From: Cetobacterium sp. NK01
GTDB taxonomy: Bacteria; Fusobacteriota; Fusobacteriia; Fusobacteriales; Fusobacteriaceae
Direction: 5' to 3'
Length of the DNA stretch: 64,000 bases
Assembly: GCF_024506395.1 (NCBI RefSeq)
Contig: NZ_JANIBO010000001.1
Coordinates: 248,001 to 312,000 of the forward strand
A program made the translations under genes and the position numbers. Below the pieces are notes generated by a model that worked only from the letters and a program-made list of their open reading frames with translations, was not told where the DNA came from and did not search any database. Positions 4,185 to 21,205 of the stretch are shown piece by piece (position 1 is the first letter of the stretch; the number at the start of each line of letters is the position of its first letter).

Positions 4185-7100
4185 TTACATATCTTTTAAA
4201 ATCTCTAATAATATTGATTTCTTTTCTTCTTCTTTGACTGATAATCCCATTGCTTTTATAGTAGCTTCTAATTTTATCTTTAACATTTTTCCCATTTGAC
4301 TATGAGTTTCTACCAAAGGTATAATTAAACTTTCTCCATTTGATATAACTTCAATTACTTCACTTACATTTTCTCTTTCCAATTCTTTTGTAACTAAAAA
4401 CTTTTCTAATCTTTCTTTAAAGTCTTCTATATCATTTAAATTCGACCAATTCTCAAAACTAAAACCTTTGATTTTAGTTGTCAAATCTAATAAAAATATT
4501 TTATCATTTTTATAAATATATTTCTTTAACCAAGTTTTTATACCATTATCAAAAACTTTAGTTTGTTCTTGCCACTTTTCTAAAGCTTCTTTTAAATTTT
4601 GTCCTGTTTTTAAAATATTTAAAATTATTTCGTGAATCTGTAATTCAATTCTTATTTTTTCATCTTCTAAGTACTTCATATCCTCTGAAATAATTTTTAC
4701 AATTTCTTTTAAATCTTTAGTCTTTGCTCTTCTTGATAATTCTTCAAATAAAAATTCATATGCATTCTTATCTTGGAATAAAATATTAAATATCTTCGAT
4801 AAAACTTTACAGTTTTTTAATGATAAATTATTTAAAAATCTATTTAATGAATAAAAATATGTTTTAAATCCTTCTACAATTCCAATCTCTATCTCTGAAT
4901 TTTCAGAATAATAAACTCCTAGTAACTCTTTTAAATTTTCTAAATATTCCTCTTCAACAGCGGTCTTTTTAACATAACTTAAATAATAGTTTTCTGGATT
5001 TTTTTCTAACTTTTCAATTATATCATTACTTAATAATTGCTTTCTTTTAGTTGTTTTATCTACTATAGCTATACATTTTTTATTCTTTATTAATACAATA
5101 CCTAAAAATAAAGTAAAAATCCCAGCTCTTAATCCATAACCTTTTACTTTAGTTGTATAATCTTCATATAAGTTCCTTATAGAATAATTTTCTAACTTTA
5201 TTTTTTCTAAAATTTCTCTCTCTAAAATTTCCCATTTAGAATCTAGAATTATATCCCCTAAATTTAAAGAACATATTTTTTTCAAAACTGTTCTTGCTAC
5301 AGAGTTAATAGCTCCTGTATTTTTATAAAACTCTTTTGATTCTAAGTTTTTATCATTTTTTATTAACATCTCCAATAAAGTTAACCTTACTTTTTTCATA
5401 GGAGTACTTATTTTTTCTTTGTTCATTAATTCATAATTTATTTCAATATAATTCCTATACTTATCAATTAAATAATCATAGGTTACATTTAATATTTTTT
5501 TATCAACAAATATTTTATTTTCAGAAATAATTTCAATTTCCTTTATAGAAAAATATTCTTTTAACTCTAAATTTATAATTGAAATCAATTCATTTTTATA
5601 TAATAAATATTCCTCTTTAAGAGATAGATTTGTGGAGCATTTCTCATCTAGAACTAAACAATCTATTGCTTCTAATTCTTTTAACAAATAACCTATTTTA
5701 AGTTTTTTGTCATTTTTATTAACAACTAAAATAATATCTTTATTTTTTAAAATATTTTTAATAGAATCAAAATTGAATGCTTTAGTTATATTAGTCAAAT
5801 AAACTATAATCCCATCCGAATATTCTTTTATTTTATCTAAATAATCTACTTGAGTAACATCTAGATAAATCTGTTTAAAATATCTTGTTATATCTTTTTC
5901 ATAATTATATTTTACTGGATAATAGTAATCTAATTCTAAATATTTATTTAAAGATGTTGTATAACTTATAGAATGCAATTTATTTTGGATATATTCTTTA
6001 ATTTCATTTTCTATATTTATTTCAGCATCTTCAACTATCTTGTAATAATTCTTGTTTCTTTTATAAGAAATAATGTTTTTTTCTTGAAGACTTTTTAATA
6101 ATAAATCCATTTCATTTTCATTTAAATCAAGAGCTAATTTCAGTATCTCTTTGTTTGGTTGGATATCAGAGAATCTATTATAAATTTCTATAATTCCTAA
6201 AGTTTTTAGAAACCTCACTTCTTCAGTATCACTAATTAAATTTAAAGCTCTTTTTGTATTAAAAAAGCTTTTATATTCTGTAGTTTCATGATTCAGAAAC
6301 TTAAAATTTTCTTCAAAATAATCATAAATTTTATCTAATCCTATTAAAAATCTATCTTCTAATATACTTTCTAAGCCTTTTTCATCATTCGAACTTAAAA
6401 AAGCAAACATTGTTCTTTCATTTTGAGCAACTTTTTGTGATAATTCTGGTAATATATATGCTGATAAATAATTTAAAGGATAAAATTCATCTATAGTTTT
6501 ATCTATATCTTGAAATATGAATTTACTTTCTGATAAATTAGTCTTATATTTATCAAATTTTTCTTTGTTTAATTCTCGATATTCTTTAAATTTATCATTT
6601 TTATATATAACTTGAGATAAAATACTTAAAGATGTCACTTTATCATAAAATAAATGCTCTTTTTTAAATCTTCCAGATACTTTTTCCCATTCGTATATAT
6701 TATCTTGTTTATTTAATTTATTTGTATATTGAAATATATCTTTGTGAGTTATTAAAAACATAATAGAGTTATTGTCACTGTTACAGTATTCTGCCATATC
6801 TTGAATCTCTTTAACATCAACTTTATTTATATTAGTTTCTAAATATCTTCCAAACTCATCAAATACATACACTACTCCTAAATAGTTTGTTTTTTCTAAC
6901 ACTTCTTTTTCAAAATTTTGAATTAATTTAACTATATCAAAACTAGATTCATAATTGATAAACTCTTCTCCATAAAAAATCTCTTTGTATACTTCTTTAA
7001 AGAGTTCTATATAGAATGGTTTATTTTTTTCTAATTGATTTTTAAACTCTTCTAAACCTATATTTTTTTCTGATAAAATTTGTGAAAGTTTCTCTATTAT

Positions 7101-7583
7101 ATTAGGATATTCTTTATCCCAATCTTGTATTTTTTTTAGAATTATTTCGCTTTCTAAATTTAAACTTATATCTAATTTTTCTTTTTTTATAGAATCAAGA
7201 ATTCCATGTAAAATTGCCTTTTCATAACTTTTAAATCTATCTCTTGCAAAAACTACTAAATATTTTTTATCTTTTAGTTTTTCATATGTTTTCTTTAATT
7301 GAAACCGTTTTTCGGCTCTATTTAAAAAAACATCAATTTCTCCTTGATTTTCAACTGATAATAAATTTAATAAAACTGACATGAAAAATGATTTTCCACT
7401 TCCATATGCTCCAGATAAAATATATGACCCATTTTTTTTCCCTAATATAGATTCACTTATTTTAGCTAACAGTTTTATATTTTTTTCAGTAGGTATATAT
7501 GCATTTATTTTTTCATTTTTTTTGTAATCATTTTCAATATTTACTGAAAACCCAACTTTTGTTATCTGTATTCCTTTGTTCAT
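4185..7583 (-). CDS. sspC: SspC-like P-loop ATPase of the phosphorothioation system
   Basis: A 1132-residue cytoplasmic ATPase. Walker A is GAYGSGKS at residues 58-65 and Walker B is FDEFGRYLE at 241-249, followed by a sensor-like stretch (SIMFLITHKD). The remainder is long and helical with no domain I can name. Size, motifs and position directly after a DUF4007 gene and a PAPS-reductase-like gene fit SspC, the ATPase of the SspABCD DNA-backbone sulfur modification system. The BREX ATPase BrxC/PglY also has such a P-loop, but the neighbours argue against BREX. Its ATG overlaps the sspB stop as ATGA, implying translational coupling. It is the last gene of the operon. Confidence 0.8.
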   Translation of the reverse strand: MNKGIQITKVGFSVNIENDYKKNEKINAYIPTEKNIKLLAKISESILGKKNGSYILSGAYGSGKSFFMSVLLNLLSVENQGEIDVFLNRAEKRFQLKKTYEKLKDKKYLVVFARDRFKSYEKAILHGILDSIKKEKLDISLNLESEIILKKIQDWDKEYPNIIEKLSQILSEKNIGLEEFKNQLEKNKPFYIELFKEVYKEIFYGEEFINYESSFDIVKLIQNFEKEVLEKTNYLGVVYVFDEFGRYLETNINKVDVKEIQDMAEYCNSDNNSIMFLITHKDIFQYTNKLNKQDNIYEWEKVSGRFKKEHLFYDKVTSLSILSQVIYKNDKFKEYRELNKEKFDKYKTNLSESKFIFQDIDKTIDEFYPLNYLSAYILPELSQKVAQNERTMFAFLSSNDEKGLESILEDRFLIGLDKIYDYFEENFKFLNHETTEYKSFFNTKRALNLISDTEEVRFLKTLGIIEIYNRFSDIQPNKEILKLALDLNENEMDLLLKSLQEKNIISYKRNKNYYKIVEDAEINIENEIKEYIQNKLHSISYTTSLNKYLELDYYYPVKYNYEKDITRYFKQIYLDVTQVDYLDKIKEYSDGIIVYLTNITKAFNFDSIKNILKNKDIILVVNKNDKKLKIGYLLKELEAIDCLVLDEKCSTNLSLKEEYLLYKNELISIINLELKEYFSIKEIEIISENKIFVDKKILNVTYDYLIDKYRNYIEINYELMNKEKISTPMKKVRLTLLEMLIKNDKNLESKEFYKNTGAINSVARTVLKKICSLNLGDIILDSKWEILEREILEKIKLENYSIRNLYEDYTTKVKGYGLRAGIFTLFLGIVLIKNKKCIAIVDKTTKRKQLLSNDIIEKLEKNPENYYLSYVKKTAVEEEYLENLKELLGVYYSENSEIEIGIVEGFKTYFYSLNRFLNNLSLKNCKVLSKIFNILFQDKNAYEFLFEELSRRAKTKDLKEIVKIISEDMKYLEDEKIRIELQIHEIILNILKTGQNLKEALEKWQEQTKVFDNGIKTWLKKYIYKNDKIFLLDLTTKIKGFSFENWSNLNDIEDFKERLEKFLVTKELERENVSEVIEVISNGESLIIPLVETHSQMGKMLKIKLEATIKAMGLSVKEEEKKSILLEILKDM

Positions 7584-8470
7584 TGAAGTAGCTCACTTTC
7601 TAAAATTTTTTTAATTATATCTTTTTCTAAGTATTTTTTTATATCAAGAGTTATATTTTGCAGTCCTGCTGCTCTATCTACATGAATTTCATCTTGTAGT
7701 TCTAACTCTTGAACTATTTTTTCAAAATCTAGATAGCTAATTCTTATAATTTTATTTACATAATCATATGCATCTATTACTGAAAGTTGATTTATTAAAC
7801 CTTGATTTTTGATTTTTTTAAAAAGTAAGTAATAAATTAAATAATCAGAGATACTTTCTCTATTTACATTTATAAACTTATAAACTCCACCAGCTTGTTT
7901 TAAATAATTTAGCTTTACAAAAGGGGAAACCATATTTTCTTCAGGATTATTTAAAGTTTTCTCATCTTTTAAATAAGTTTTAATAAAAACATTTATTGTA
8001 TCTTCTAAAGTTTTTTTAGAATATTTTATTCTATTTTCAATACAAAAAAGCTCTGCTTTTTTTTCCAAACTTTCTTTTGAAAAACTATTATTTTCTTGAT
8101 TTTTAAAAACCAAATCCCATATTAATACTTTTTCATTTTTTTTAGTTAAAATATTAGAATGTAACAACCATAAACTATTTAAGTTCTCTAAATATGGATC
8201 TAATTGGAATATAATCTTTGAGTTTTCACTTAATTCTAAATCATCTCCATTTTTTTCTATAATTCCTAAAATATCTATCCAATATTTTATTGATTCAACC
8301 ATTTTGCTTCCGACACCTAAAGTATCTATTGCTACTGATAAATTATTTTTTGAAAAAAATGACTTATCTATTTTTTTATTTATATCTTTTTCATAAACCT
8401 TATAAAATAATTTATTTATCCAATTTTCTCTTATATAAAAAGAACTATGACCACTTATTATAACTTTCAT
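7580..8470 (-). CDS. sspB: SspB-like DUF4007 protein (phosphorothioation nickase)
   Basis: A 296-residue protein opening with the DUF4007 hallmark GHSSFYIRENW and then SVAIDTLGVGSKMVESIKYW, corresponding to the family pattern of a G-H-E/S-x-F start and an LGVGxxMV helix. DUF4007 proteins sit beside PAPS-reductase-like genes in single-strand phosphorothioation loci, where SspB is reported to nick DNA so that sulfur can be inserted. I start at ATG 8470, two bases after the sspD stop, because GAGGT lies 6 nt before it and the family homology begins there; an earlier in-frame start at 8512 lies inside sspD. It is coupled to sspC by a 4-bp overlap. Confidence 0.85.
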   Translation of the reverse strand: MKVIISGHSSFYIRENWINKLFYKVYEKDINKKIDKSFFSKNNLSVAIDTLGVGSKMVESIKYWIDILGIIEKNGDDLELSENSKIIFQLDPYLENLNSLWLLHSNILTKKNEKVLIWDLVFKNQENNSFSKESLEKKAELFCIENRIKYSKKTLEDTINVFIKTYLKDEKTLNNPEENMVSPFVKLNYLKQAGGVYKFINVNRESISDYLIYYLLFKKIKNQGLINQLSVIDAYDYVNKIIRISYLDFEKIVQELELQDEIHVDRAAGLQNITLDIKKYLEKDIIKKILESELLQ

Positions 8471-8472
8471 TT

Positions 8473-10110: not shown

Positions 10111-10126
10111 ATTATTTCCTCTATTT

Positions 10127-12265
10127 CTATCTATCGCTTAATTGATGAAGTTCTCTTAATAAAGTATCTTTTATAGTGTTGTACCTTTCTTCTAAAACTC
10201 TTCTATAATATTCATCCAAATTCTCATTACACTTTTGATTTAAATTTCTATTTATCATTTGTCCTATTCTAGACATATCTTGAACATCACTCATATATTT
10301 ATCAAACCCCATATCTCTTATTTTTCTATTAGCTTCTTTACTTATTAAAGTTCTATTTAATATACTATTTAATATATGTGTTTTATCATTTCTTATTTTA
10401 GAACTTAATTCTCCATATTTAGTTCCTGTTCCTAAAGGAATTAAATGATGATCTTCTAATTCTTTTGAACTTTCAGTTATTTCAAATGTTTTTAATTTTT
10501 CTGAATGGTTTCCAGGCAATAAATCATAAGGCTCTAGACTTAATATATAACCTAATAGATTTCTACTAACAGGACTCGGAGTTTTTGAATCGTTTAATAA
10601 AGTTTCTAAATCAGAATAACTTTCTACATTTAAAACCTTATCTATATTATCTTCTATTAATTCTTTTACTTTTAGATCATCTAATTTATTTAAGTTTATC
10701 CATTTATGAAGAGTTTTTAAATCTTCTACAGATCTTATATTTTGTCTTTCCCTAAATCTTCCTATAAATATCGATGTCCAATACCAATATTCAATCTTAT
10801 CCCAAACTCTTTTATCTTTCCAATTATCATCATCAGATAAAATATATGCAATCGGTAATAACATTAGTTCAAATGATATGTTTCCTAATTTTATAACCCC
10901 TAGTCTATAGTTGGCAAATGCTAACGCTCTTAATAAAGATTTGATTGTCTTAGGGGTCAAACTATTAATCTGGTCCGTTGTCATTTCAAACATTTTATCT
11001 CTTTTTATATGATCTAACTTTAAGTTTAATGGATCTTCTACATGAGAAAAAATTGACATTAAGTTTAAATATTGATTTTTAAATCTTTTATTTAGTTCAT
11101 CCTGACCTTCTATTACTCCAATATTTAATCCATTCCAAATAGTGTTTTCTTGAGGTAAAATATTCTTAGGAATATTAATTCCTTCTTCTACAAGTTTTTT
11201 TATTCTTTGAGTTAAAGATTCTAATTTTGAATCCTTAGCAGCTTTCGCTACAATCAAATCATAATTATCTAATGGTGTCCCACCTTTATTAATTGTTTCA
11301 AAAATTGCTATTCCTCTACTGATCTCATTTTTTTCTATCTCAATTACTGAAATCTCCTGCTCTATCAATTTATCTAGAAAATTAGTAATTTTTGTTTTCC
11401 ACTCAGCTGCCAAGGCTGATTTTAGATTACTTTTCCTCTCATCAAATTCATCTAAAACCTCTTCGTCGTTCAATTCTGGATCGATATCCTTAAAATAATA
11501 TTTTATTTGCTTTATTTTTTCTTCTTCTTCATATTCATCAATTTCATCTACTATTTCATCAGCTCTTTTATTGGCTATTTTTTCTACAACTTTATTTTGT
11601 AAATTTTTCCCTTCATTTAGACCAAATAAAGGTATTAATTTTTCTTCACTACAAAGATTTGCAAACTCATTAACTTTAGCTGCTTCACTTACTTTTTGAA
11701 AACTATATTTTGGATGATACCATATAGTTTTAGTTGATATTTTATTTGTTGTTTTGTCATTTATTTTATAATCTTGTATAAAATCGATGATTTCACTCGG
11801 AGTATATTTCCTCAAATTTTCACAACTAAAATCTAAGTTTTCATATCCAAAAATATCTTGATTTTCAGAATCTCCACTCTGAACCTTTAAAAACCATCTA
11901 TTTCTTATTTTTCCATAAGTACTAGAATATTTCTTTTCCCACTCCCCTTTATTTTCTTCGTTAAATTTAAAAAGATCTGTAAATATGGCTTTTAAAGTCG
12001 ACATTCTTTGTTGTCCATCTAATAAATATAAACACTCATCTTTAGCCTCTTCTACTTCATCTGAATAACATAGTTTTCTATAATTAAAATCACTTGAAGT
12101 ACCTTTTAATAATAGAATACTACTTATTGGTAGTTCAACTAAAAATGTTGCAAGTAGTTCTTTTTGTTGTTTAGAATCCCATACAAATTCTCTTTGAAAA
12201 TTTGGAAGAATAAGCTTTTTTTCCTCTTCTTCTTGAAATATTTCCCTTAGTTTTTTTACTTTCAA
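10127..12265 (-). CDS. SspE-like DUF262/HNH restriction effector
   Basis: 712 residues. The N-terminal DUF262 (ParB/Srx-like) domain has PNFQREFVWD at 21-30 and DGQQR at 83-87, the signature for nucleotide binding. The middle is helical. Near residues 610-650 a DUF1524-like HNH nuclease carries LEDHHLIPLG and later Asn residues (ILNRTLIS). This is the architecture of SspE and of GmrSD-type enzymes. SspE is reported to sense phosphorothioate and nick invading DNA. The start is a TTG at 12265 with AGGGGGA upstream. Position among sspA/B/C/D homologues supports the SspE role, but I cannot tell SspE from another DUF262 enzyme by sequence alone. Confidence 0.8.
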   Translation of the reverse strand: MKVKKLREIFQEEEEKKLILPNFQREFVWDSKQQKELLATFLVELPISSILLLKGTSSDFNYRKLCYSDEVEEAKDECLYLLDGQQRMSTLKAIFTDLFKFNEENKGEWEKKYSSTYGKIRNRWFLKVQSGDSENQDIFGYENLDFSCENLRKYTPSEIIDFIQDYKINDKTTNKISTKTIWYHPKYSFQKVSEAAKVNEFANLCSEEKLIPLFGLNEGKNLQNKVVEKIANKRADEIVDEIDEYEEEEKIKQIKYYFKDIDPELNDEEVLDEFDERKSNLKSALAAEWKTKITNFLDKLIEQEISVIEIEKNEISRGIAIFETINKGGTPLDNYDLIVAKAAKDSKLESLTQRIKKLVEEGINIPKNILPQENTIWNGLNIGVIEGQDELNKRFKNQYLNLMSIFSHVEDPLNLKLDHIKRDKMFEMTTDQINSLTPKTIKSLLRALAFANYRLGVIKLGNISFELMLLPIAYILSDDDNWKDKRVWDKIEYWYWTSIFIGRFRERQNIRSVEDLKTLHKWINLNKLDDLKVKELIEDNIDKVLNVESYSDLETLLNDSKTPSPVSRNLLGYILSLEPYDLLPGNHSEKLKTFEITESSKELEDHHLIPLGTGTKYGELSSKIRNDKTHILNSILNRTLISKEANRKIRDMGFDKYMSDVQDMSRIGQMINRNLNQKCNENLDEYYRRVLEERYNTIKDTLLRELHQLSDR

Positions 12266-12282
12266 TTACTTATCCCCCTAAA

Positions 12283-12813
12283 TTATACGATTATTTTCAT
12301 GACCTCGTTTATTTCTCTCTCTTCTCTTTCCTCATCAAACATATTCTCTAAAAAATTTTCTGGACTTTCTAAAAAATCCTCAAAGTTTCTTATATATCCT
12401 TCTCCATCTTTTGTTAATATCTCTTTTAACTTTTCTATTCCTAAACTGGCACAATTATTAAATATATCTACTATTCTTTTATTGTCTAATATATCTTCAA
12501 TACTATTATTTAAAGATAATGCTACTGAATATATTAAATGGTAATATTCACTAAAATCAACTGGTGATAAAGGTCTAAATTCTTTTTTTACTAAACTATG
12601 TTTTTCAATTTTTAGAGGTTGATTTGAATATAAATTAAATCCTATTAATGCTGCTAACACATATATATCTTTTTTTGTATCAAAGAAACCATCTCCTCTT
12701 TGATTTAATAACTCATTATATATATTATCAAATTCCTTTTCGTAACCAAATCCATTTAGTTCATTACTCACTTCTCTTCTTTTTCTTATCTCTTCTTGAA
12801 ATAGTTCATTCAT
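12283..12813 (-). CDS. Phosphorothioation-associated protein (dnd_assoc_4-like)
   Basis: 176 residues, soluble, helical and acidic at the C-terminus. The stretch FFDTKKDIYVLAALIGFNLY followed by an SLALSLNN-like helix and an IFNNCASLGIEKLKEIL segment resembles the family named DNA phosphorothioation-associated protein 4, which is found beside DndD-like ATPases. It has no catalytic motif. One base separates it from the ATPase gene upstream, so the two are very likely co-translated and may form a complex. It may be one component of an SspFGH-like module. Family assignment is from memory of the pattern and should be checked by profile search. Confidence 0.62.
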   Translation of the reverse strand: MNELFQEEIRKRREVSNELNGFGYEKEFDNIYNELLNQRGDGFFDTKKDIYVLAALIGFNLYSNQPLKIEKHSLVKKEFRPLSPVDFSEYYHLIYSVALSLNNSIEDILDNKRIVDIFNNCASLGIEKLKEILTKDGEGYIRNFEDFLESPENFLENMFDEEREEREINEVMKIIV

Positions 12814-12814
12814 A

Positions 12815-14860
12815 TTAAATCTCCTCTTTTATTCTTGTAACATCATATCTTTTGTCTATTCCTGTTCTTCTTTCATTTTCTAATGTATATATCTTCCCTA
12901 TTTTATCTTTAACAACATTTTCTATTGTAGAATTCCATTGTCCTGATGAAACCATTACAATGACCTGCTCCGATAAAATTGGTAACATTTTAGTAAAGTC
13001 CAATCTATAGTCATTATCTAAATCACCATATGGAGCATCTAACACTAAAGGGTATATTCCACCATCACAATCTAACTCAGACTTATTTTTTTCTTTATTT
13101 AATTCCTTTGCGTAATAAACTAATCCTCCAATAAAGCTTAAAGCTTTATTTTTTGCTTCTCCCTTTGACGTTCCAGCTTCTTTCCCATCTGTATCAAAAA
13201 CTTTGAATTCAAAATTTTCTGTCAATTCAACACTATATCTCTTTTTATTTATTCGAGAATAAACCTCTTCTATTTTATGCTTTAATCCTTCTCTTCCTTG
13301 AGCTTCTTTATATTTTTTCAAAGTTTCAAGATTTAACATTATTTTTTCTGCAAAATCTCTTTTTATTCTTGCTCTTTTATTTTTTGTATCTCTTTTCTCA
13401 GCCTCTACTTTTTCAATTCTAACTGAAGTTAATTCTTTTTCAATTCTTTCTATCTCTAATTCTAAAGCTCCTATTTTTTTATGAAGATTATTTTTTATCT
13501 CATCCTTATTCGTAATTGTTGTTTTTATATTTTGCAACTCAACTTGAAGATCATAATTAGATTCTTTTAATAAAACATCTAACTCATCTTCAATACTATC
13601 TATTTTATTTTGAATCTTATTATTTTCTAATTTTATCGAATTTATAATTTCTAGAAAATTCTTTTGTTCTCTATTTTTTAACATAAAATATACTTCACTT
13701 ACTTTTTCTCTATTCTCTTTTGTTGCAGCATTTTCTAATTTTGCTACTATTTTAGCATAGTTATCCGTATGACTAGCTAATGATGCTCCGCATATACACT
13801 CTTTTAGATTTAGTAATTCTTCTAAAAATTCTTTCTCATATCTTGACGGTATTTCTCCTTTCTCTTTTTTTCTTTCAATTACTCTAAAACCATTTTTTAA
13901 TATTTGAGATGAAATAATCTCAACACCTTTTAATGATAAAAATTGTTCATATCTCTTTTGAATTAGCTCTTTCGAATTTTCTTGTTGTTTTTTATCAGCT
14001 TGTAAAAACTCAACTCTTTTTTTATTTTTTTCATCTTCCTGACTTATCATCATGAGCTCATTTACTTTATTATTTAACTCTTCTTTTTCTATATCTATAA
14101 CTTCAATTTCTTTTATTATTTCTGCTTTTGTATCTAATTTACTTTTATATTCATTCTCTATTGCGCTAACTTTTTTTTCTAAATCCACAATATTTTTATT
14201 AGAACTATTGCTTTCAGAATATTCTTTCTCTAGCTCTTTGTAAACTTTTGATGTATCTAAAACAGCATTTTCTAAACTTTTTATTCCTAATACTCTGTTT
14301 ATAGATTCTTCGATTGCTTCTATACTTTCTTTTTTTGCTTTCTTTTGATTCTCTTTTTCTGGAGCTATTTTTTCTAATCTTTCTCCATCAACAAAAAAAT
14401 TAATTTCTTTCGGTAATAAACGATTTATTATCTCCTGACAATGTATAGCTGAATTCTCACTTGTTATTTTCCCATCTCTAGATTCTATATCCAATCTTAC
14501 ACCTTTAAATATATCGTTCTCAAAACTTATTTCTCTTGTTATTTTGTATTCTTGCTCTATACTATTTTCTGACACTTTTCCAACTATATTTAAAATTACT
14601 TTAGCTGACACTTTATTTTTATTTTCATCTAAATATTTTTTATTTACAAAACTACTCGCTCCAAATTTTTTAGGATCTGCTGATGTTAAATCTAAATTCC
14701 CTCCATATAATCCCCATTTAATAGCTTCTAAAAGAGTTGTTTTTCCAGAACCATTCTCAGCTTTTAAAAGCGTTATATTTTTTTCTCCACTACAAAACTC
14801 TAATTTTACTTTTCCATAATATGGTCTAAAATTTTCTAAGATTATACTTTTAAATATCAT
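12815..14860 (-). CDS. DndD-like SMC/Rad50-type ATPase
   Basis: About 681 residues. The N-terminal ABC-type head has Walker A AENGSGKTT near residue 34-42 and FFVDGERLEKIAP, the pattern seen in DndD. Two long coiled-coil arms flank a central CICG, which may be a reduced zinc hook. The C-terminal head carries GGLVYYAKEL and the Walker B region LVLDAPYGDLD. Such ATPases act on DNA in phosphorothioation modification or restriction. Because SspC is also present, this one more likely belongs to a second, restriction-type module. I chose ATG 14860, which overlaps the upstream stop as TAATG; a GTG at 14872 is the alternative. Confidence 0.85.
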   Translation of the reverse strand: MIFKSIILENFRPYYGKVKLEFCSGEKNITLLKAENGSGKTTLLEAIKWGLYGGNLDLTSADPKKFGASSFVNKKYLDENKNKVSAKVILNIVGKVSENSIEQEYKITREISFENDIFKGVRLDIESRDGKITSENSAIHCQEIINRLLPKEINFFVDGERLEKIAPEKENQKKAKKESIEAIEESINRVLGIKSLENAVLDTSKVYKELEKEYSESNSSNKNIVDLEKKVSAIENEYKSKLDTKAEIIKEIEVIDIEKEELNNKVNELMMISQEDEKNKKRVEFLQADKKQQENSKELIQKRYEQFLSLKGVEIISSQILKNGFRVIERKKEKGEIPSRYEKEFLEELLNLKECICGASLASHTDNYAKIVAKLENAATKENREKVSEVYFMLKNREQKNFLEIINSIKLENNKIQNKIDSIEDELDVLLKESNYDLQVELQNIKTTITNKDEIKNNLHKKIGALELEIERIEKELTSVRIEKVEAEKRDTKNKRARIKRDFAEKIMLNLETLKKYKEAQGREGLKHKIEEVYSRINKKRYSVELTENFEFKVFDTDGKEAGTSKGEAKNKALSFIGGLVYYAKELNKEKNKSELDCDGGIYPLVLDAPYGDLDNDYRLDFTKMLPILSEQVIVMVSSGQWNSTIENVVKDKIGKIYTLENERRTGIDKRYDVTRIKEEI

Positions 14861-15042
14861 TAGTCGCTCCACTCCATTGAATATTGTCCGATTATCTCTT
14901 TAATTTCTTTTACTGTCACAGCACTTTCTTTTTTAATTAATCTATCTGGATTATTCTCTAATTTGATTATTGCAATTATTGTATTTTGCTCATTTTTACT
15001 TAAGCTTGCAAAGAATTCTTGTCCTTTTGATTTTGCACTCAT
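14860..15042 (-). CDS. Tiny DNA-modification-associated protein
   Basis: 60 residues, helical, charged, no Cys pair or membrane segment. It lies between the PLD-helicase and the DndD-like ATPase, 12 bp after the former and overlapping the latter by one base (TAATG). Small proteins of this size are regularly found next to DndD-like ATPases in DNA-modification loci, and this gene's reading frame and tight spacing argue that it is real. It may be an adaptor for the ATPase. A GAGGA ribosome-binding site is visible upstream. No catalytic function can be proposed. Confidence 0.7.
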   Translation of the reverse strand: MSAKSKGQEFFASLSKNEQNTIIAIIKLENNPDRLIKKESAVTVKEIKEIIGQYSMEWSD

Positions 15043-15054
15043 TCTATCCTCTCC

Positions 15055-17148
15055 TCATATTCCATAAAACTCTTTTATTTTTTTTAATTCATTTTCATTT
15101 CTATTTTTATTTAAAGCTAACGAATTATATTCTTGAAGTCTTTTTAATTCACCTTCGACTAATTTTTTTTCATAGTTAAAATTAGAGTCCTGTATAGGTT
15201 CATAATTTTCATAGCTTCTAGGAACTATTAAAAAATCATGTATTTCTGCTATATCTTTACCACTGGCTTTTCTTAATATTCTTCCTCTTCTTTGAACATA
15301 TTCTCTATAATTCCCTGTACTTCCCAAAATATAAGCTCTTTCTATTGACGGAATATTTATTCCCTCATCTAAACATTTTATAGCTACAACTGCATTTATA
15401 TCTTTTTTAACAAATTTTCCAATTACCTCTTCTCTCTCCTCTTTAGATTCCTGAGATGTAAATTTCATAAGTTTAAAATTTAATTTTTTCGATATGATAT
15501 CCATTGTTTTATCTATAAACTTTTGTTCGGTATCCTCATACTCACTTTTACTTTTTCCAGCTCCAACATATATAAGATTATTAAAACTATCTTCATCAAT
15601 AATTTCTAACAATTTATCTATTTTATTGCTCGTTAAATTTAATAATCTAGCTCTTTTAAATAAAAGCATCTCTAAAGGAGTTGACTCTTTTTTCTTATCC
15701 TTTATATTTGAAGATTTAGAAAAACTCATTGAAGATATTTTTTTACTCAGCTCTATATATTCTCTCTCTTCATCCTCTGTTAAAGTTACAAAATAAGGAT
15801 AATATTTGTAATTTGTTAAAAATTCACCTTTTATAGCATCTTCTAAAGAAAATTGAAAAACAACATTTCCTAAATATTTTTCTATAATTTCATTTCCTTT
15901 TTGATCTCCTTGTCTATCTGGTGTAGCTGATAATCCAAGCCTCAGAGATATTTTTTTTAATTCTTCTTTTTCTAAAAACTCTTCAAAACTAGAACTTCCA
16001 ATATTATGACATTCATCTACTACGATCATAATCTCCTTTTTGATTCTTCTTACTGCTCTCAAAAAAGAGATATTTTGTAATGTCTTATTTGTCACAACTG
16101 CAACTACAACATCTTCTTGATTTTCATTTAGTAAAAATAGTTTTCTATTTATTTCATCTTTCCAATTTTTATTTTCTGAATTACAAATTATAGATTTTAT
16201 TCCAAATTCTTTAATTTCCTCTGACCACTGTCTTACTAAATATGTTTGAGGACAAACTACTATAAAAAACATTCTTTTTTCTTTAGATATTTCTGTCATT
16301 ATATTCAAAGCTGTTAATGTTTTTCCACTTCCAGTCGCCATTTCTAATATTCCTTTAAAATTATTATTTTTCCAATTTTTAAAAGCTTCACTTTGATACT
16401 CTCTAACTATTAACCACTCTGGTTTAGATAAACCTTTTAATAAGTTTTTTTTATATTTTTTATTTAAAATTACTTTTATTTCTTCATCTGTTGGAGCTTT
16501 TGAAATTATATTTTTTTTGATTGCTTCGCTTAAATCAATTACTTCGATTTTATTTGTTTCATTAGCCCAAAGTTTTTCAAAATCCTTCTCTTTATTTTCT
16601 ACTCTTTCCAAATCTTTTTTTCCATCTAACGATGAATAAACATCTATCGATTCAAAATTTCTACTCATTCCTCCAATAGTTTCATTAACTGATCCTGAAA
16701 AAGCTATCTTATTATTTTTTATATCTCTAAATATCCCAAACTTCTCATGATAAATTCCAAAATGATTTTTTTGATAAGCTATCTTTAATTGAAGTATATT
16801 TTTACTAAGTAACCAAGAAAATATCTTTGTAATATCTTCTTCTTTTCCAGAATAAAATTTTTCCAATTCTTTTTCTATTTTCAAATTAATTACTTCTATA
16901 TCATCTAATTTTTTTATAGTTTCCAAATCTTTTTCAGATAATTTAGGAGACGTTACAACTCTCATTAAACCATTATTTTTTATAAGATTTTCTACTCCTT
17001 CTAACAATAAGCATAAACTATCACTTGTAAAATATCCTACAGCTCTATCATAAGAAATTGAATTTTTTAAACATTTTTCAAAAAAATCACAATAAATATC
17101 ATCATTATCACTTCTATACGATGTTTTTAAATCTAATATTTCAAACAT
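15055..17148 (-). CDS. PLD-domain superfamily 2 helicase
   Basis: 697 residues with two parts. The N-terminal phospholipase-D-like fold (about 20-190) has HEKFGIF at 134-140 and SGSVNET at 151-157, an HKD-like half-site that could cleave phosphodiesters. The helicase core follows: Walker A ATGSGKT at 271-277, VVDECHN (DEAD/DEAH box), LSATPDR, and a C-terminal motif VI QRRGRILRKAS. This is the DEAD/DEAH-box nuclease-helicase type found in phosphorothioation restriction loci. It would unwind or translocate on unmodified DNA. It is separated by 21 bp from the coiled-coil gene and 12 bp from the small gene. Confidence 0.85.
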   Translation of the reverse strand: MFEILDLKTSYRSDNDDIYCDFFEKCLKNSISYDRAVGYFTSDSLCLLLEGVENLIKNNGLMRVVTSPKLSEKDLETIKKLDDIEVINLKIEKELEKFYSGKEEDITKIFSWLLSKNILQLKIAYQKNHFGIYHEKFGIFRDIKNNKIAFSGSVNETIGGMSRNFESIDVYSSLDGKKDLERVENKEKDFEKLWANETNKIEVIDLSEAIKKNIISKAPTDEEIKVILNKKYKKNLLKGLSKPEWLIVREYQSEAFKNWKNNNFKGILEMATGSGKTLTALNIMTEISKEKRMFFIVVCPQTYLVRQWSEEIKEFGIKSIICNSENKNWKDEINRKLFLLNENQEDVVVAVVTNKTLQNISFLRAVRRIKKEIMIVVDECHNIGSSSFEEFLEKEELKKISLRLGLSATPDRQGDQKGNEIIEKYLGNVVFQFSLEDAIKGEFLTNYKYYPYFVTLTEDEEREYIELSKKISSMSFSKSSNIKDKKKESTPLEMLLFKRARLLNLTSNKIDKLLEIIDEDSFNNLIYVGAGKSKSEYEDTEQKFIDKTMDIISKKLNFKLMKFTSQESKEEREEVIGKFVKKDINAVVAIKCLDEGINIPSIERAYILGSTGNYREYVQRRGRILRKASGKDIAEIHDFLIVPRSYENYEPIQDSNFNYEKKLVEGELKRLQEYNSLALNKNRNENELKKIKEFYGI

Positions 17149-17169
17149 TTCTATTTTTCCCTTTCTTTA

Positions 17170-20004
17170 TTAGAATAATATATCTGCAATAGTTTTATCT
17201 AATTCTACTTTTAAATCGCTATCTTGTACTTCTTTATCTTCAATAACTTTTAAATTTTTAATCTTTAAATTATTCTTACTCTCATGTATCTTTTTTATTA
17301 AAGGATATAATTCTGAATAATTATTTTTTATAATTTGATATTGACTTTTATTTACTTCTAAATTATTTTCAATATATTTTCCTAAAGTAAATATCTTTTT
17401 TCTTAACCATTCACTTATATTTCCATCTTTCTTAGACAAATCATAAAGCTCATACCAATCATTTGCACTATAATTTTCTAAATCATTAAATGTTATTTCC
17501 TCTTCTAATAAATTTACTTCTAGTGGAATTTCATTAATTTTTTTATTTAAGGAGTTATCTACTTTTTGAACCTTATCTTTATACATATCCTCTATAAGTT
17601 TTTCATAAAATAATTCTATTTTTTCCAAACTCATATCTGTTAATGGTAACTTTAATTTTAATCTTGTCATTATATTTGAAAAATCTCTTTCTTGAGATGG
17701 TTTTAAGATTTTTCTTTTTTTACCCTCTATATAAATTTCTTTAAAATCAGATTCTGTGAAATTTCTTAATAATGGAATTAAATCATTTTTATTTTCTAAA
17801 AATTTTTCATAATCACTCCATTTACCAACTAATCTAAGCTCCTTTTTATTTTCTTGTATTTCATTTTCTTTTAAATCTATTTTAATTTCTTCTAATACAT
17901 CTTCTTTTTCTTTTATTACTTCTTTTTGTTCAACTTTATTAAATAGAGTTTTATGGTATCCTTCCATAAATTTTATGTATAATTCATTTATTTTATCAGT
18001 ATTTAATTTTGATAATGGAGTTCCCCATTTTAACCAAGTTATTACAGTTAAAATTTGTCTCTCATCAAATGTATTAAAAATATTTTTTTCTTTCCCTAAA
18101 GAAACAATTTTTCTAAAATCATTTTCTGAAAAAGTAGATAAATATTCACTTAACCTATCTTTATTTTTTAAATACTCATTGTAATCTGTACAACTCCATG
18201 TACTAGACCTTTCAATTGAATCTACCATTACTTTTTCTTTCTCTAAATTACTTTTACCTTCTTGCATCTTTAATAACTCTTTTGACACTCTTGCTTTTTC
18301 TATTTTTTCTTCAGTTATTTTTTTCTCTAAATTTTCTATCTTTATTTTTAACTCTTGGCATTTTAACCCTAACATCTCTTTTTTTAACAGCTCTTTTTCT
18401 AATTCCTTCTTCTCTTCACACAACGAAACTATCTCTTTTGATAGTTTTTCTTTTTCTTCTTTTTCCACTTCATTAACTTTTTTTAATTCTTTTAATTCTT
18501 TTTCTAAAACATTTTTTTCTTCTCCTACTTTTAACACTTCTTCTGATAATTTTTTCTTTTCTACTTTATCTTTAGTTGATTTTTCCGTTAAATCTTCTAA
18601 TGTTAATTTAAGTTCTTGGTATCTTAACTCTAACGTTGCTTTTTTTAACAGCTCTTTTTCTAATTCTTTCTTCTCTTCACACAACGAAACTATCTCTTTT
18701 GATAGTTTTTCTTTTTCTTCTTTTTCCACTTCATTAACTTTTTTTAATTCTTTTAACTCTTTTTCTAAAACATTTTTTTCTTCTCCTACTTTTAACACTT
18801 CTTCTGATAATTTTTTCTTTTCTACTTTATCTTTAGTTGATTTTTCCGTTAAATCTTCTAATGTTAATTTAAGTTCTTGGTATCTTAACTCTAACGTTGC
18901 TTTTTTTAACAGCTCTTTTTCTAATTCTTTCTTCTCTTCACACAACGAAACTATCTCTTTTGATAGTTTTTCTTTTTCTTTTTTTTCCACTTCATTAACT
19001 TTTTTTAATTCTTTTAACTCTTTTTCTAAAACATTTTTTTCTTCTCCTACTTTTAACACTTCTTCTGATAATTTTTTCTTTTCTACTTTATCTTTAGTTG
19101 ATTTTTCCGTTAAATCTTCTAATGTTAATTTAAGTTCTTGGTATCTTAACTCTAACGTTGCTTTTTTTAACAACTCTTTTTCTAATTCTTTCTTCTCTTC
19201 ACACAACGAAACTATCTCTTTTGATAGTTTTTCTTTTTCTTCTTTTTCCACTTCATTAACTTTTTTTAATTCTTTTAACTCTTTTTCTAAAACATTTTTT
19301 TCTTCTCCTACTTTTAACACTTCTTCTAATAATTTTTTCTTTTCTACTTTATCTTTAGTTGATTTTTCCGTTAAATCTTCTAATGTTAATTTAAGTTCTT
19401 GGTATCTTAACTCTAACGTTGCTTTTTTTAACAGCTCTTTTTCTAATTCTTTCTTCTCTTCACACAACGAAACTATCTCTTTTGATAGTTTTTCTTTTTC
19501 TTCTTTTTCCACTTCATTAACTTTTTTTAATTCTTTTAACTCTTTTTCTAAAACATTTTTTTCTTCTCCTACTTTTAACACTTCTTCTGATAATTTTTTC
19601 TTTTCTACTTTATCTTTAGTTGATTTTTCCGTTAAATCTTCTAATGTTAATTTAAGTTCTTGGCATCTTAAATCTAACGTTGCTTTTTTTAATAGCTCTT
19701 TTTCTAATTCTTTCTTCTCTTCACATAATAATTTTTTTTCATTTTCTAATTCTCTTTGGATAATTTTAATTTTTATTAATTCATCTTTTTGATTCTCATT
19801 TTCAATTTTCAAATTTTTCATATCTTTATCTTTCATTTGAATTTTTTCTTTTAAACTTTCAAAATTCTTTAACTCTTCTTGTAAAATCTCATTATTTTTT
19901 AATATACGAGCAAGTTCATTTTTTAAAAAATTACATTTTTCTATTGATTCATCTAAATCTTCTTCCAACTTTTTATCTCGAAACAACTCTTTCAATATTT
20001 TCAT
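17170..20004 (-). CDS. Repeat-amplified coiled-coil protein with three C-terminal modules
   Basis: 944 residues, very rich in Lys/Glu, with no signal peptide. Residues ~1-95 are irregular coiled coil. Then come five 87-residue repeats, nearly identical (each holding LCEEKKELEKELLKK and LTLEDLTEKS), and a sixth degenerate unit. After a break (SSTWSCTDYNEYL) there are three related ~80-residue helical modules: one from WSCTDYNEYLKNK, one from KWSDYEKFLENK, and a more distant one from ENYSANDWYELYD. The first two share an NDF/SDF, ER-I and LS/DM layout. I know no such protein in Dnd or Ssp systems. It lies 8 bp after sspA and 21 bp before the helicase, so it is clearly operonic. A scaffold, filament or phage-sensing role is possible but speculative. 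Confidence 0.85.
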   Translation of the reverse strand: MKILKELFRDKKLEEDLDESIEKCNFLKNELARILKNNEILQEELKNFESLKEKIQMKDKDMKNLKIENENQKDELIKIKIIQRELENEKKLLCEEKKELEKELLKKATLDLRCQELKLTLEDLTEKSTKDKVEKKKLSEEVLKVGEEKNVLEKELKELKKVNEVEKEEKEKLSKEIVSLCEEKKELEKELLKKATLELRYQELKLTLEDLTEKSTKDKVEKKKLLEEVLKVGEEKNVLEKELKELKKVNEVEKEEKEKLSKEIVSLCEEKKELEKELLKKATLELRYQELKLTLEDLTEKSTKDKVEKKKLSEEVLKVGEEKNVLEKELKELKKVNEVEKKEKEKLSKEIVSLCEEKKELEKELLKKATLELRYQELKLTLEDLTEKSTKDKVEKKKLSEEVLKVGEEKNVLEKELKELKKVNEVEKEEKEKLSKEIVSLCEEKKELEKELLKKATLELRYQELKLTLEDLTEKSTKDKVEKKKLSEEVLKVGEEKNVLEKELKELKKVNEVEKEEKEKLSKEIVSLCEEKKELEKELLKKEMLGLKCQELKIKIENLEKKITEEKIEKARVSKELLKMQEGKSNLEKEKVMVDSIERSSTWSCTDYNEYLKNKDRLSEYLSTFSENDFRKIVSLGKEKNIFNTFDERQILTVITWLKWGTPLSKLNTDKINELYIKFMEGYHKTLFNKVEQKEVIKEKEDVLEEIKIDLKENEIQENKKELRLVGKWSDYEKFLENKNDLIPLLRNFTESDFKEIYIEGKKRKILKPSQERDFSNIMTRLKLKLPLTDMSLEKIELFYEKLIEDMYKDKVQKVDNSLNKKINEIPLEVNLLEEEITFNDLENYSANDWYELYDLSKKDGNISEWLRKKIFTLGKYIENNLEVNKSQYQIIKNNYSELYPLIKKIHESKNNLKIKNLKVIEDKEVQDSDLKVELDKTIADILF
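18419..19723. repeat. Five 261-bp tandem repeats within the coiled-coil gene
   Basis: The marker CACAACGAAAC recurs at 18419, 18680, 18941, 19202 and 19463, exactly 261 bp apart, and is replaced by a diverged form at 19722. Units differ by only a few bases (for example one EE to KE change and one S to L change). 261 is a multiple of 3, so changes in copy number keep the frame. Confidence 0.95.
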
Positions 20005-20012
20005 AGCCTCTC

Positions 20013-21149
20013 CTAAAATATACTTTCTAAAACCTCTGTTAGTTTGTATAAATCCTCTTCATCATTAAAATATCCAACTGATAATCTTAAAGTTCCGTTT
20101 TTATCGGTCTCCATATGTTTATGGGCTAAAGGAGCACAGTGAAGACCTCTTCTCGTTATTATTCCCCCATCATTAAAAATATTTTCTAATTCTTGTGGGG
20201 TATAATCATTAGCTTCTATTGAGATAACTCCAACATTATTTTCTCTATCTGATAAAATTTTCAAATCATATGAATATTCTTCTAAAAGATCATATAAATC
20301 TCTTATGTTTTTCTGCTTTTTATTTTTTATATTTTCTATCCCAATTTTCAAAAGTTCATCAGTTGATATCTTAAGACCAATTATCCCTAATATATTTGGA
20401 CTTCCCGCTTCAAATCTCTCTGGAAGCTCCTCTGGCATGTCTTCATCTTCAGAATTAATTCCTGTACCACCATATAATAGTGGTTTTAGATGAACATTTT
20501 TATTATAGATATATCCTCCTATTCCTGACGGCCCATATAAATTTTTGTGTCCTGCAAAAACTATAAAATCTGAAGAAATAGAGATTTCTGAAAAATCTAA
20601 AACTCCTCCAGTTTGCGTTGCATCTAAAATTGTTATAGCATCATATTTTTTTCCCTCTTCAAATATATCTTTTACTGGTAAAATATTTCCAAAAACATTT
20701 GATGCATGATTACATATTATTAAATCTGGTTTTTTTGACATAAATTGAAGTTTCATATTTTCAAAATCTAAATCAAATCTATGAAATTTTAAAACTTTTA
20801 TATCTATATTTTTCTCTTTTATAACTCTTTTTAAAACTCTATAGACTGAATTGTGTTCAAAAGGTGATATGTAAACTGTTTTTATATTAGTATAATCTAA
20901 TCCCAATATAATTTCGTTTAATGAAAATGTAGCAGATGAATTTAGTATTACTTCATTTTTAGTCTTAAATATTGTTTTTATATTTTTTATCAAATTCTCT
21001 TTTATAGATTTTGCATCTTTACTTTTTTCTGAGTTATTTCGTGAAAAATTAACTCCATACTTTTCATAAATATTCATAGTATCCTCATAAAAATTTTTAA
21101 ATTTAGGATAAGATGTTGATGCATTGTCAAAATAAGTTATATTTTTCAT
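20013..21149 (-). CDS. sspA: Cysteine desulfurase of the phosphorothioation system
   Basis: 378-residue class-V aminotransferase fold. PLP ligands are visible: His149 (NHAS), Asp176 (DATQ) and Lys202 in the AGHKN loop. The nucleophilic Cys338 lies in RRGLHCAP, which carries sulfur as persulfide. SspA/DndA-type enzymes take sulfur from L-cysteine and pass it to the SspD/DndC partner. Close relatives act in Fe-S assembly (IscS, SufS), but here the gene opens a phosphorothioation operon and no Fe-S scaffold gene is adjacent. GGGAGA lies before the ATG. The leader contains a strong terminator-like hairpin. Confidence 0.85.
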   Translation of the reverse strand: MKNITYFDNASTSYPKFKNFYEDTMNIYEKYGVNFSRNNSEKSKDAKSIKENLIKNIKTIFKTKNEVILNSSATFSLNEIILGLDYTNIKTVYISPFEHNSVYRVLKRVIKEKNIDIKVLKFHRFDLDFENMKLQFMSKKPDLIICNHASNVFGNILPVKDIFEEGKKYDAITILDATQTGGVLDFSEISISSDFIVFAGHKNLYGPSGIGGYIYNKNVHLKPLLYGGTGINSEDEDMPEELPERFEAGSPNILGIIGLKISTDELLKIGIENIKNKKQKNIRDLYDLLEEYSYDLKILSDRENNVGVISIEANDYTPQELENIFNDGGIITRRGLHCAPLAHKHMETDKNGTLRLSVGYFNDEEDLYKLTEVLESIF

Positions 21150-21172: not shown

Positions 21173-21205
21173 AAAGGACTAATTTTTGATAAAAATTAGT
21201 CCTTT
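21173..21205 (-). terminator. Strong hairpin terminator in front of sspA
   Basis: Perfect 15-bp stem AAAGGACTAATTTTT / AAAAATTAGTCCTTT with a 3-nt loop. On the minus strand it is followed by a run of seven T. It lies only ~24 bp before the sspA start and could end the upstream gene or attenuate sspA. Confidence 0.85.

What the first reader, a model, noticed from the sequence alone, without database searches (positions are those of the whole stretch)
4185..21149. Ten-gene phosphorothioation defence operon with two effector modules
The sequence shows, in one minus-strand operon with gaps of at most ~21 bp, homologues of SspA, SspD, SspB (DUF4007) and SspC, an SspE-like DUF262/HNH protein, and a second block of PLD-helicase, tiny protein, DndD-like ATPase and a phosphorothioation-associated protein. 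Established work describes SspABCD with SspE, and separately with SspFGH. Having both effectors in one transcript, plus an extra coiled-coil gene, is an unusual composition. I cannot say which of the block's genes equal SspF, G and H.
Basis: partly seen in the sequence, partly recalled or inferred. Interest (0 to 1): 0.8.

Follow-up and report, generated by a model that had tools for sequence, protein, structure and literature searches.

The report
Sulfur-marked DNA defence with two effectors
A bacterium related to Fusobacterium has one run of ten genes that probably puts sulfur on its own DNA and guards it with two different attack modules, one of them (Pbe) known so far mainly as a partner of a different sulfur-marking system; the same pairing recurs in many other bacteria and may explain why so many of these gene sets looked incomplete.

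Summary
In detail: ten minus-strand genes at 4185-21149, gaps of at most 21 bp, behind a conserved leader hairpin. The naming needs correcting. The second block is not SspFGH but PbeABCD (PLD-helicase PbeA, 60-aa PbeB, CxC-hook ABC ATPase PbeC, PbeD). So the locus is SspABCD modification + PbeABCD + a DUF262-HNH effector that resembles SspE but cannot be filed as SspE. SspABCD with SspE and SspFGH is already published; Ssp with Pbe was not seen in the passages I read. That pairing recurs: SspB+SspC lie in the same gene run in 50 of 80 PbeA loci (ranked by likeness to our PbeA). In samples drawn by DUF4007, PbeA was adjacent in 8 of 12 Fusobacteriota (window genome included), 4 of 7 Clostridia, 3 of 14 Bacilli and 1 of 14 Pseudomonadota. 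In the host genus (probably Cetobacterium) one species keeps Ssp+DUF262-HNH without Pbe, and PbeB-C-D seems to swap between species as a block. The 944-aa coiled-coil gene was found only in this locus (3 of 98 Fusobacteriota, plus a wreck in a fourth). Phosphorothioation, defence and dependence of Pbe on the Ssp mark are inferred, not shown.

The parts
21173..21205 (-). leader hairpin (15 bp stem) followed by a T run, 24 bp before the sspA start codon; a TATAAT lies at 21282-21277
   Evidence: aligned in the 5 Ssp-bearing species of the genus with 4 of 14 pairs changed on both sides; folding z -4.1
20013..21149 (-). sspA: cysteine desulfurase, 378 aa, RRGLHCAP motif
17170..20004 (-). CC: 944-aa coiled-coil protein found only in this locus; conserved N end, C-terminal domains predicted helical, invariant ADILF tail
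18296..19725 (-). in-frame tandem array inside CC, 261 bp x 5.5 copies, 97% alike
15055..17148 (-). pbeA: PLD (HxK...D, GSxN) nuclease domain plus SF2 helicase, 697 aa
14860..15042 (-). pbeB: 60-aa small protein at the pbeB position
   Evidence: a small ORF lies between PbeA and PbeC in 28 of the 30 loci printed
12815..14872 (-). pbeC: DndD-like ABC ATPase with Walker A and CxC hook (C-I-C at 359-361); real start probably the ATG at 14860
12283..12813 (-). pbeD: 176 aa, weak TIGR04062 (dnd_assoc_4)
10127..12265 (-). SspE-like effector: DUF262 (DGQQR at 83-87) plus HNH (HHLIP at 606-610), 712 aa
8473..10110 (-). sspD: BrxP-type PAPS-reductase with SGGKDS loop and C-terminal 4Fe-4S region, 545 aa
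7580..8512 (-). sspB: DUF4007; real start probably the ATG at 8470
4185..7583 (-). sspC: ATPase with Walker A GAYGSGKS, 1132 aa

Best explanation
This is a complete Ssp-type DNA phosphorothioation defence operon that carries two separate effectors. SspA takes sulfur from cysteine, SspD activates the phosphate through its PP-loop and Fe-S part, and SspB (DNA binding, nicking) with SspC (ATPase) place sulfur on one strand of the host's own DNA. PbeC-PbeD scan DNA and read the mark, PbeB holds them in check, and PbeA (helicase plus PLD nuclease) stops replication of unmarked DNA. The DUF262-HNH protein is a second, nucleotide-driven nickase governed by the same mark. The coiled-coil protein is an optional accessory that probably tethers or senses for the Pbe part. 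Shown here: gene content, conserved linkage, motifs, leader hairpin, divergence pattern that fits block exchange of PbeB-C-D. Inferred from homology: the PT chemistry, the role of each protein, the dependence of both effectors on the Ssp mark.
For: All four Ssp modification proteins and four proteins at the Pbe positions are present, with motifs intact. Ssp and Pbe are linked far beyond this genome: SspB+SspC in 56 of 80 PbeA loci, 50 of 80 in one uninterrupted same-strand run (recounted). Fusobacteriota: 12 of 98 genomes have DUF4007 over the cut-off, 11 of 98 have true PbeA, 8 (the window's genome included) have both side by side. Samples drawn by DUF4007 alone: Clostridia 4 of 7 (4 of the 6 with SspC; the centre genome not counted), Bacilli 3 of 14, Pseudomonadota 1 of 14. 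Two gene orders exist, and the host genus's PbeA is a separate clade from the main Ssp-linked clade, so the pairing probably arose more than once. In species G010 the same operon lacks Pbe and CC but keeps SspA, the DUF262-HNH gene, SspD, SspB and SspC. PbeABCD depends on PT rather than on contact with the Dnd proteins, and spares PT-marked virus (PMC6459918 section 8), so a change of modification partner is plausible.
Against: No PT measurement exists for this strain in what I saw. PbeABCD was shown to work with 5'-GATC marks from DndCDEA (PMC6459918), while studied Ssp systems mark CCA on one strand; that this Pbe reads an Ssp mark is untested. PbeA also occurs without Ssp (17 of the 87 tree rows that could be classified), and many solitary or methylase-linked cases are published. 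The 80-locus sample is ranked by likeness to our PbeA and so over-counts loci like ours; in Bacilli and Pseudomonadota the pairing is a minority. The SspE-like protein has Phe (F23) where SspE and DndI have the PT-sensing Tyr. PbeD matches its family only below the curated cut-off.
Confidence: 0.7

Rival explanations
1. Two independent defence systems sit side by side in a defence hot spot. Ssp plus the DUF262-HNH gene form the PT system; the Pbe block with CC is a passenger that uses no PT mark or another signal.
For: The same flank carries other genes in two relatives (G008, G009). G010 shows Ssp without Pbe. PbeA also lives without Ssp (17 of 87 classified tree rows). PMC10853773 notes that Pbe also occurs independently of DndD-centred systems in numerous taxa and doubts that it is a plain restriction partner of Dnd.
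Against: Pbe lies inside the Ssp operon, between SspA and the DUF262-HNH gene, with gaps of at most 21 bp. The pairing recurs in several phyla and in two gene orders. Published PbeABCD depends on PT.
Confidence: 0.2
2. The block is SspFGH, as in the Vibrio SspABCD-SspFGH system.
Against: No SspF, G or H model is among the hits shown for the ten proteins (PbeC's list is cut at 25 of 50), while SspH models hit L207 at 1e-84. SspH has an FtsK-like C end (PMC8092258); no FtsK hit is listed for the block. PbeA and PbeC models hit at 749 and 1117 bits.
Confidence: 0.02
3. It is a type 4 BREX locus (BrxP, BrxC, PglZ, BrxL).
For: SspD's best PADLOC model is BrxP (2.5e-92) and SspC also hits BrxC. PMC12839542 notes that SspB, C and D share homology with type 4 BREX parts and that a subset of SspD has the same extra domains.
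Against: No PglZ or BrxL hit is shown for the ten proteins; the best SspC model scores 273 bits against 93 for BrxC.
Confidence: 0.02
4. The locus is decaying and inactive.
For: CC is a wreck in the sister species G006; an extreme tandem array sits in CC. SspC of G006 meets a stop about 180 aa early, but only 15 bp before the end of its contig and after a sudden loss of likeness, so an assembly end is as likely.
Against: All ten window frames are open with catalytic motifs kept; in G002 and G007 the Ssp and Pbe frames are also open, SspC of G007 being cut by the fetched stretch.
Confidence: 0.06

Closest known systems
DndCDEA-PbeABCD of Haloterrigena jeotgali A29 (Xiong 2019, PMC6459918)
   Same: PbeA domain set (PLD, ResIII, helicase C), small PbeB, AAA_23 PbeC, small PbeD, next to a PT modification module
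   Different: Modification module here is SspABCD (one-strand mark in studied cases), not DndCDEA; a further DUF262-HNH effector and CC share the run
SspABCD-SspE (Vibrio, Streptomyces)
   Same: SspA-D and a DUF262-HNH protein with DGQQR
   Different: SspD is the BrxP type with 4Fe-4S; the effector is not hit by SspE models; Phe replaces the PT-sensing Tyr; Pbe is added
SspABCD-SspFGH, alone or with SspE (Wang 2021, PMC8092258)
   Same: Two effectors on one SspABCD module
   Different: Second effector is Pbe, not the FtsK-bearing SspFGH
Type 4 BREX (BrxP, BrxC, PglZ, BrxL)
   Same: BrxP-like SspD and BrxC-like SspC
   Different: No PglZ or BrxL hit in the run
BrxU (7P9K) and DndI (9JFL)
   Same: DUF262-DUF1524 fold of the effector (Z 10.7 and 8.1)
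   Different: BrxU is a type IV enzyme; DndI belongs to a Dnd operon

Membership tests
SspABCD modification module | SspA cysteine desulfurase with catalytic Cys | tested here: met
   PADLOC SspA 5e-23, Aminotran_5 202 bits, RRGLHCAP (motif meaning recalled); it does not separate SspA from DndA-like desulfurases (8e-23)
SspABCD modification module | SspB with DUF4007 | tested here: met
   DUF4007 177.5 bits, PADLOC SspB 2e-43
SspABCD modification module | SspC ATPase | tested here: met
   PADLOC SspC 1e-81, Walker A
SspABCD modification module | SspD PAPS-reductase/ATP pyrophosphatase with PP-loop | tested here: met
   PAPS_reduct 118 bits, SGGKDS at 166; best PADLOC model is BrxP, not SspD
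SspABCD modification module | one-strand PT mark, CCA in studied systems | not testable with these tools
   needs LC-MS/MS and PT sequencing
PbeABCD | PbeA with PLD, ResIII and helicase C domains | tested here: met
   PADLOC PbeA 749 bits; Pfam ResIII 95.7, Helicase_C 55.6, PLDc_2 27.2 bits
PbeABCD | small PbeB between PbeA and PbeC | tested here: met
   60-aa ORF at that place; by position and size only, no profile hit
PbeABCD | PbeC ABC ATPase with CxC hook | tested here: met
   PADLOC PbeC 1117 bits, AAA_23, C-I-C at 359
PbeABCD | PbeD, a DndE cognate | tested here: inconclusive
   TIGR04062 in 13 of 21 aligned PbeD at E<=0.01, below cut-off in the window; PDB search gave no DndE
PbeABCD | PT-dependent block of phage replication | not testable with these tools
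   needs an assay
SspFGH | SspH with FtsK/SpoIIIE C end | tested here: not met
   no SspH or FtsK hit shown for the ten proteins; models work elsewhere
SspE | DUF262 with DGQQR plus DUF1524/HNH | tested here: met
   DGQQR 83-87 and H606, H607, P610 invariant in 7 and in 6 aligned sequences; GmrSD_N 74 bits; GmrSD_C is not listed at E<=0.05, so the HNH half rests on motif and fold
SspE | match to SspE profiles | tested here: not met
   no SspE model at E<=0.01, though SspE models hit L086, L095 and L215
SspE | fold closest to SspE | tested here: inconclusive
   VIA Z: BrxU 10.7, DndI 8.1, SspE 5.6-6.8; model pLDDT 67.5
SspE | PT-sensing Tyr (Y30 in SspE, Y25 in DndI) | tested here: not met
   Phe at 23, invariant in 7 and in 6 sequences; position judged by eye from the P-x-Y/F-Q-R motif, no SspE or DndI sequence was aligned
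Type 4 BREX | PglZ and BrxL present | tested here: not met
   neither among the hits shown for the ten proteins

The most novel reading that the evidence does not exclude
Pbe is a third general effector of Ssp phosphorothioation, the commonest one in Clostridia and Fusobacteriota. PbeB-C-D is its exchangeable recognition cassette, swapped between species like a specificity subunit, and locus-specific add-ons (CC here, a dedicated sigma factor in many other loci) tune it. Together with the DUF262-HNH effector it forms a defence with two effectors that both need the mark.
Probability: 0.35. Interest if true: 0.75.

Novelty: new variant of a known kind. Interest (0 to 1): 0.6.

Why it matters
Two published loose ends meet here. 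Xiong 2019 found 320 of 553 pbeAC without dnd genes, and Wang 2021 found 2,211 of 2,678 sspBCD without SspE or SspFGH and raised the possibility of more effectors. Ssp-Pbe operons could account for part of both and make the question directly testable: swap Dnd for Ssp under one Pbe set and ask whether Pbe reads any phosphorothioate or a sequence-specific one. The divergence of PbeB-C-D between sister species points to where recognition may reside.

Tried and rejected
SspFGH and type 4 BREX assignments were tested and dropped. The coiled-coil protein: no PADLOC, NCBIfam or Pfam family at threshold (Pfam Ribosomal_L19e at E 0.016 is below its cut-off), only PHROG hits at E 0.02-0.05 for its last 335 aa, no relatives in viral contigs (573 pattern stretches, none confirmed), and in 98 Fusobacteriota only this locus plus a 19-bit hit in G089 at 6e-4. 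A single-sequence fold of its last 335 aa had pLDDT 50.9 and its PDB matches stayed under Z 4, so nothing is concluded from them.

A search for DndC in the own genome gave no match, but the same search missed SspD, which hits that model at 1e-9 in hmmscan; it does not show that Dnd genes are absent. Plasmid search with SspC found only distant partial matches: 53 records, none over 80% of the query. PbeA in viral contigs: 14 loci, none above 33% identity, not followed. The PDB search with PbeD gave one weak TetR hit at E 0.025. SspE solved structures were not found by sequence.

PbeA census: the family search rings in all 98 genomes (and in 14 of 14 control genomes) because of helicase motifs; I counted only the 11 matches above 580 bits, the next being 135 bits. 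The tree is the quick kind, with long branches flagged for L065, L193, L206 and L212.

In the Clostridia count, of the three loci without PbeA one (G446) sits on a 13-kb contig, one (G357) has a partial DUF4007 and no SspC, and one (G344) shows none over two adjoining stretches of 36 kb. Pseudomonadota L206 has PbeA and PbeC near a partial DUF4007 without SspC and was not counted.
Full report
What is there. The window lies in a 3.1-Mb genome whose nearest named relative among the PbeA loci is an uncultured Cetobacterium with a 96% identical PbeA (L067), so the host genus is probably Cetobacterium. Ten minus-strand ORFs run from 21149 to 4185 with gaps of at most 21 bp. In order of transcription: SspA, a 944-aa coiled-coil protein (CC), PbeA, a 60-aa protein, PbeC, a 176-aa protein, a DUF262-HNH protein, SspD, SspB, SspC. 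Catalytic motifs are intact: RRGLHCAP in SspA, HxK...D with GSxN in PbeA, Walker A and a CxC pair in PbeC, SGGKDS and a C..C..C...C cluster in SspD, DGQQR and HHxxP in the DUF262 protein, Walker A in SspC. The meaning given to each motif is partly recalled and partly from the papers cited.

Naming the second block. PADLOC's PbeA models hit the PLD-helicase at up to 749 bits and its PbeC model hits the ATPase at 1117 bits. Rakesh 2024 (PMC10853773, section 16 and passages read) defines PbeA as an HKD nuclease fused to an SF2 helicase, PbeB as a small fast-evolving protein, PbeC as a CxC ABC ATPase and PbeD as a DndE cognate; the window fits in order and size. The DndE nature of PbeD could not be confirmed by sequence. 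SspFGH is not supported: no SspF, G or H model is among the hits shown (for PbeC the best 25 of 50), although SspH models hit the Bacilli locus L207.

Is the pairing real? A scan of 84,980 species with a PbeA alignment kept the best 80 of 361 relatives. SspB and SspC (60 bits or more) lie in 56 of these 80 loci and in the same uninterrupted same-strand run in 50 of 80, mostly as SspD-SspB-SspC-SspA-PbeA-PbeC-PbeD; the 50 include Bacillota (38), Fusobacteriota, Pseudomonadota, Spirochaetota (2 each), Actinomycetota and Campylobacterota (1 each), and 4 without a phylum. That sample is ranked by likeness to our PbeA, so I drew others by DUF4007 alone. Fusobacteriota: 12 of 98 genomes over the cut-off, 8 of them, the window's included, with PbeA next to it. 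Clostridia: 393 genomes, 8 over the cut-off including the centre genome; of the other 7, PbeA is adjacent in 4. Bacilli: 398 genomes, 14 over the cut-off, PbeA adjacent in 3. Pseudomonadota: 397 genomes, 14 over the cut-off, PbeA adjacent in 1. So the pairing is common in the first two groups and a minority in the last two. Fisher's test on the Fusobacteriota table gives p 5e-7, without correction for shared descent.

More than one origin. In the host genus it is SspA-[CC]-PbeA-B-C-D-DUF262/HNH-SspD-SspB-SspC. The PbeA tree puts the host genus in its own clade (100*), outside the main Ssp-linked clade; the fewest changes between Ssp-linked and not are 4 (quick tree, long branches flagged).

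Three modules together. Of the 56 PbeA loci with SspB+SspC, 7 also hold a DUF262 protein with DGQQR within two genes of the cluster, one of them from the host genus. So Ssp + Pbe + DUF262-HNH is a minority but recurrent make-up. Two effectors on one SspABCD was already shown to be additive for SspE and SspFGH, with 36 genomes carrying both (PMC8092258: first part and passages read).

The SspE-like protein. Its architecture agrees with SspE, but no PADLOC SspE model hits at 0.01. The AlphaFold model (6 sequences, pLDDT 67.5) matches BrxU (Z 10.7), DndI (8.1) and SspE structures (5.6-6.8). The PT-sensing Tyr of SspE and DndI (PMC9646914 and PMC11662687, passages read) is Phe in the sequences aligned. 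It probably works like this group, but I do not file it as SspE. SspE is silent without PT while DndI is toxic without it, and which holds here is open.

Natural experiments in the genus. G010 has SspA, the DUF262-HNH gene, SspD, SspB and SspC at the same flank with no Pbe or CC; its SspD is 99% identical to that of G007, which has Pbe, so Pbe was probably lost there. G008 and G009 share the flank but carry other genes. Along the operon, G000 and G002 are 94-95% identical in PbeA, 71-81% in PbeB-PbeC, and 87-96% from PbeD to SspC; G002 and G006 are 93-97% through PbeA-PbeC, 89% at PbeD and then 69-89% from the DUF262-HNH gene onward (500-base bins). Protein identities agree: PbeC 69% and PbeD 74% between G000 and G002, against 95% in PbeA and in the DUF262-HNH protein. 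The simplest reading is recombination that swaps PbeB-C-D as a unit, as expected if it carries recognition; this is inference, and fast divergence under selection is not excluded.

The coiled-coil gene. It holds a 261-bp array, 5.5 copies, 97% alike, in frame, a conserved N end and an invariant ADILF tail in 3 sequences of 944, 440 and 879 aa; its C-terminal part is predicted helical at low confidence. It is found in 3 of 98 Fusobacteriota, each time between SspA and PbeA (a 19-bit hit in G089 at 6e-4 is not counted). G006 keeps a broken start, fragments and the last codons as a wreck. So it goes with Ssp-Pbe of this genus, is dispensable, and varies in length. A role as tether or sensor is a guess.

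Leader. A 15-bp hairpin and T run lie 24 bp before sspA. It is kept in the five Ssp-bearing species of the genus, with 4 of 14 pairs changed on both sides and one pair broken in two species, and folds with z -4.1 in the window. In G007 the upstream gene points the other way, so the hairpin belongs to this operon there; an attenuator is my inference.

Mechanism. PbeABCD in archaea depends on PT rather than on contact with the Dnd proteins, spares PT-marked virus, is not toxic without PT, and halts replication without visible cleavage (PMC6459918 passages, sections 8 and 10). Rakesh 2024 argues that the HKD nuclease does cut and that Pbe may act apart from PT or by suicide. The least demanding model is that Ssp supplies the mark and Pbe reads it.

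Print status. Searches covered open-licence PMC papers only. In the passages read I saw no statement that PbeABCD pairs with SspABCD: Xiong 2019 counts Dnd and methylase neighbours; Wang 2021 counts SspE and SspFGH and does not name PbeABCD; PMC7464106 used both dnd and ssp queries when counting pbeA-D, so it may hold such cases unremarked; the EcoSal review lists the restriction branches apart and says that modification and restriction clusters can sometimes be exchanged; PADLOC mentions Dnd and Pbe with a 'PT_other' model. Three of the ten papers that name PbeABCD were seen in the listing only, as were PMC8053081 and its like. Nat Microbiol 2020 on SspE is not held, and no supplement could be read. 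So 'not described' is provisional.

Noticed in passing
L112:14867-15967 and 23 other Pbe loci: A sigma-70-like protein (Pfam regions 2 and 4 in L112; the others by a profile made from three of them) is the first or second ORF after PbeD in 24 of 69 Pbe loci, 20 of them with SspB+SspC; the L106 copy is short and weak. I saw no mention of a sigma factor in the phosphorothioation passages I read; the search for it was, listing only.
   Followed up: partly
L062:4133-12290 and L063: Ssp loci of G024 and G076 carry a second, weaker DUF4007 match; in L062 there is also a second SspC/BrxC-like 1318-aa protein and a PglZ-like 782-aa protein: a possible Ssp / type 4 BREX blend.
   Followed up: partly
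L112:9666-9989, L094:9689-9970: A small (107 and 93 aa) gene lies between SspA and PbeA in these two loci, the place CC holds in the window; the L112 copy had no PADLOC or Pfam family, the L094 copy was not scanned.
   Followed up: no
L189 and L190: The flank shared with the window carries other gene sets in G008 and G009, so the site looks like a hot spot for variable genes.
   Followed up: partly
L207-L209, L211, L214, L215: Six Bacilli Ssp loci without Pbe have a 1724-1738-aa ORF before SspB; the one scanned (L207) is SspH-like with an FtsK domain.
   Followed up: partly
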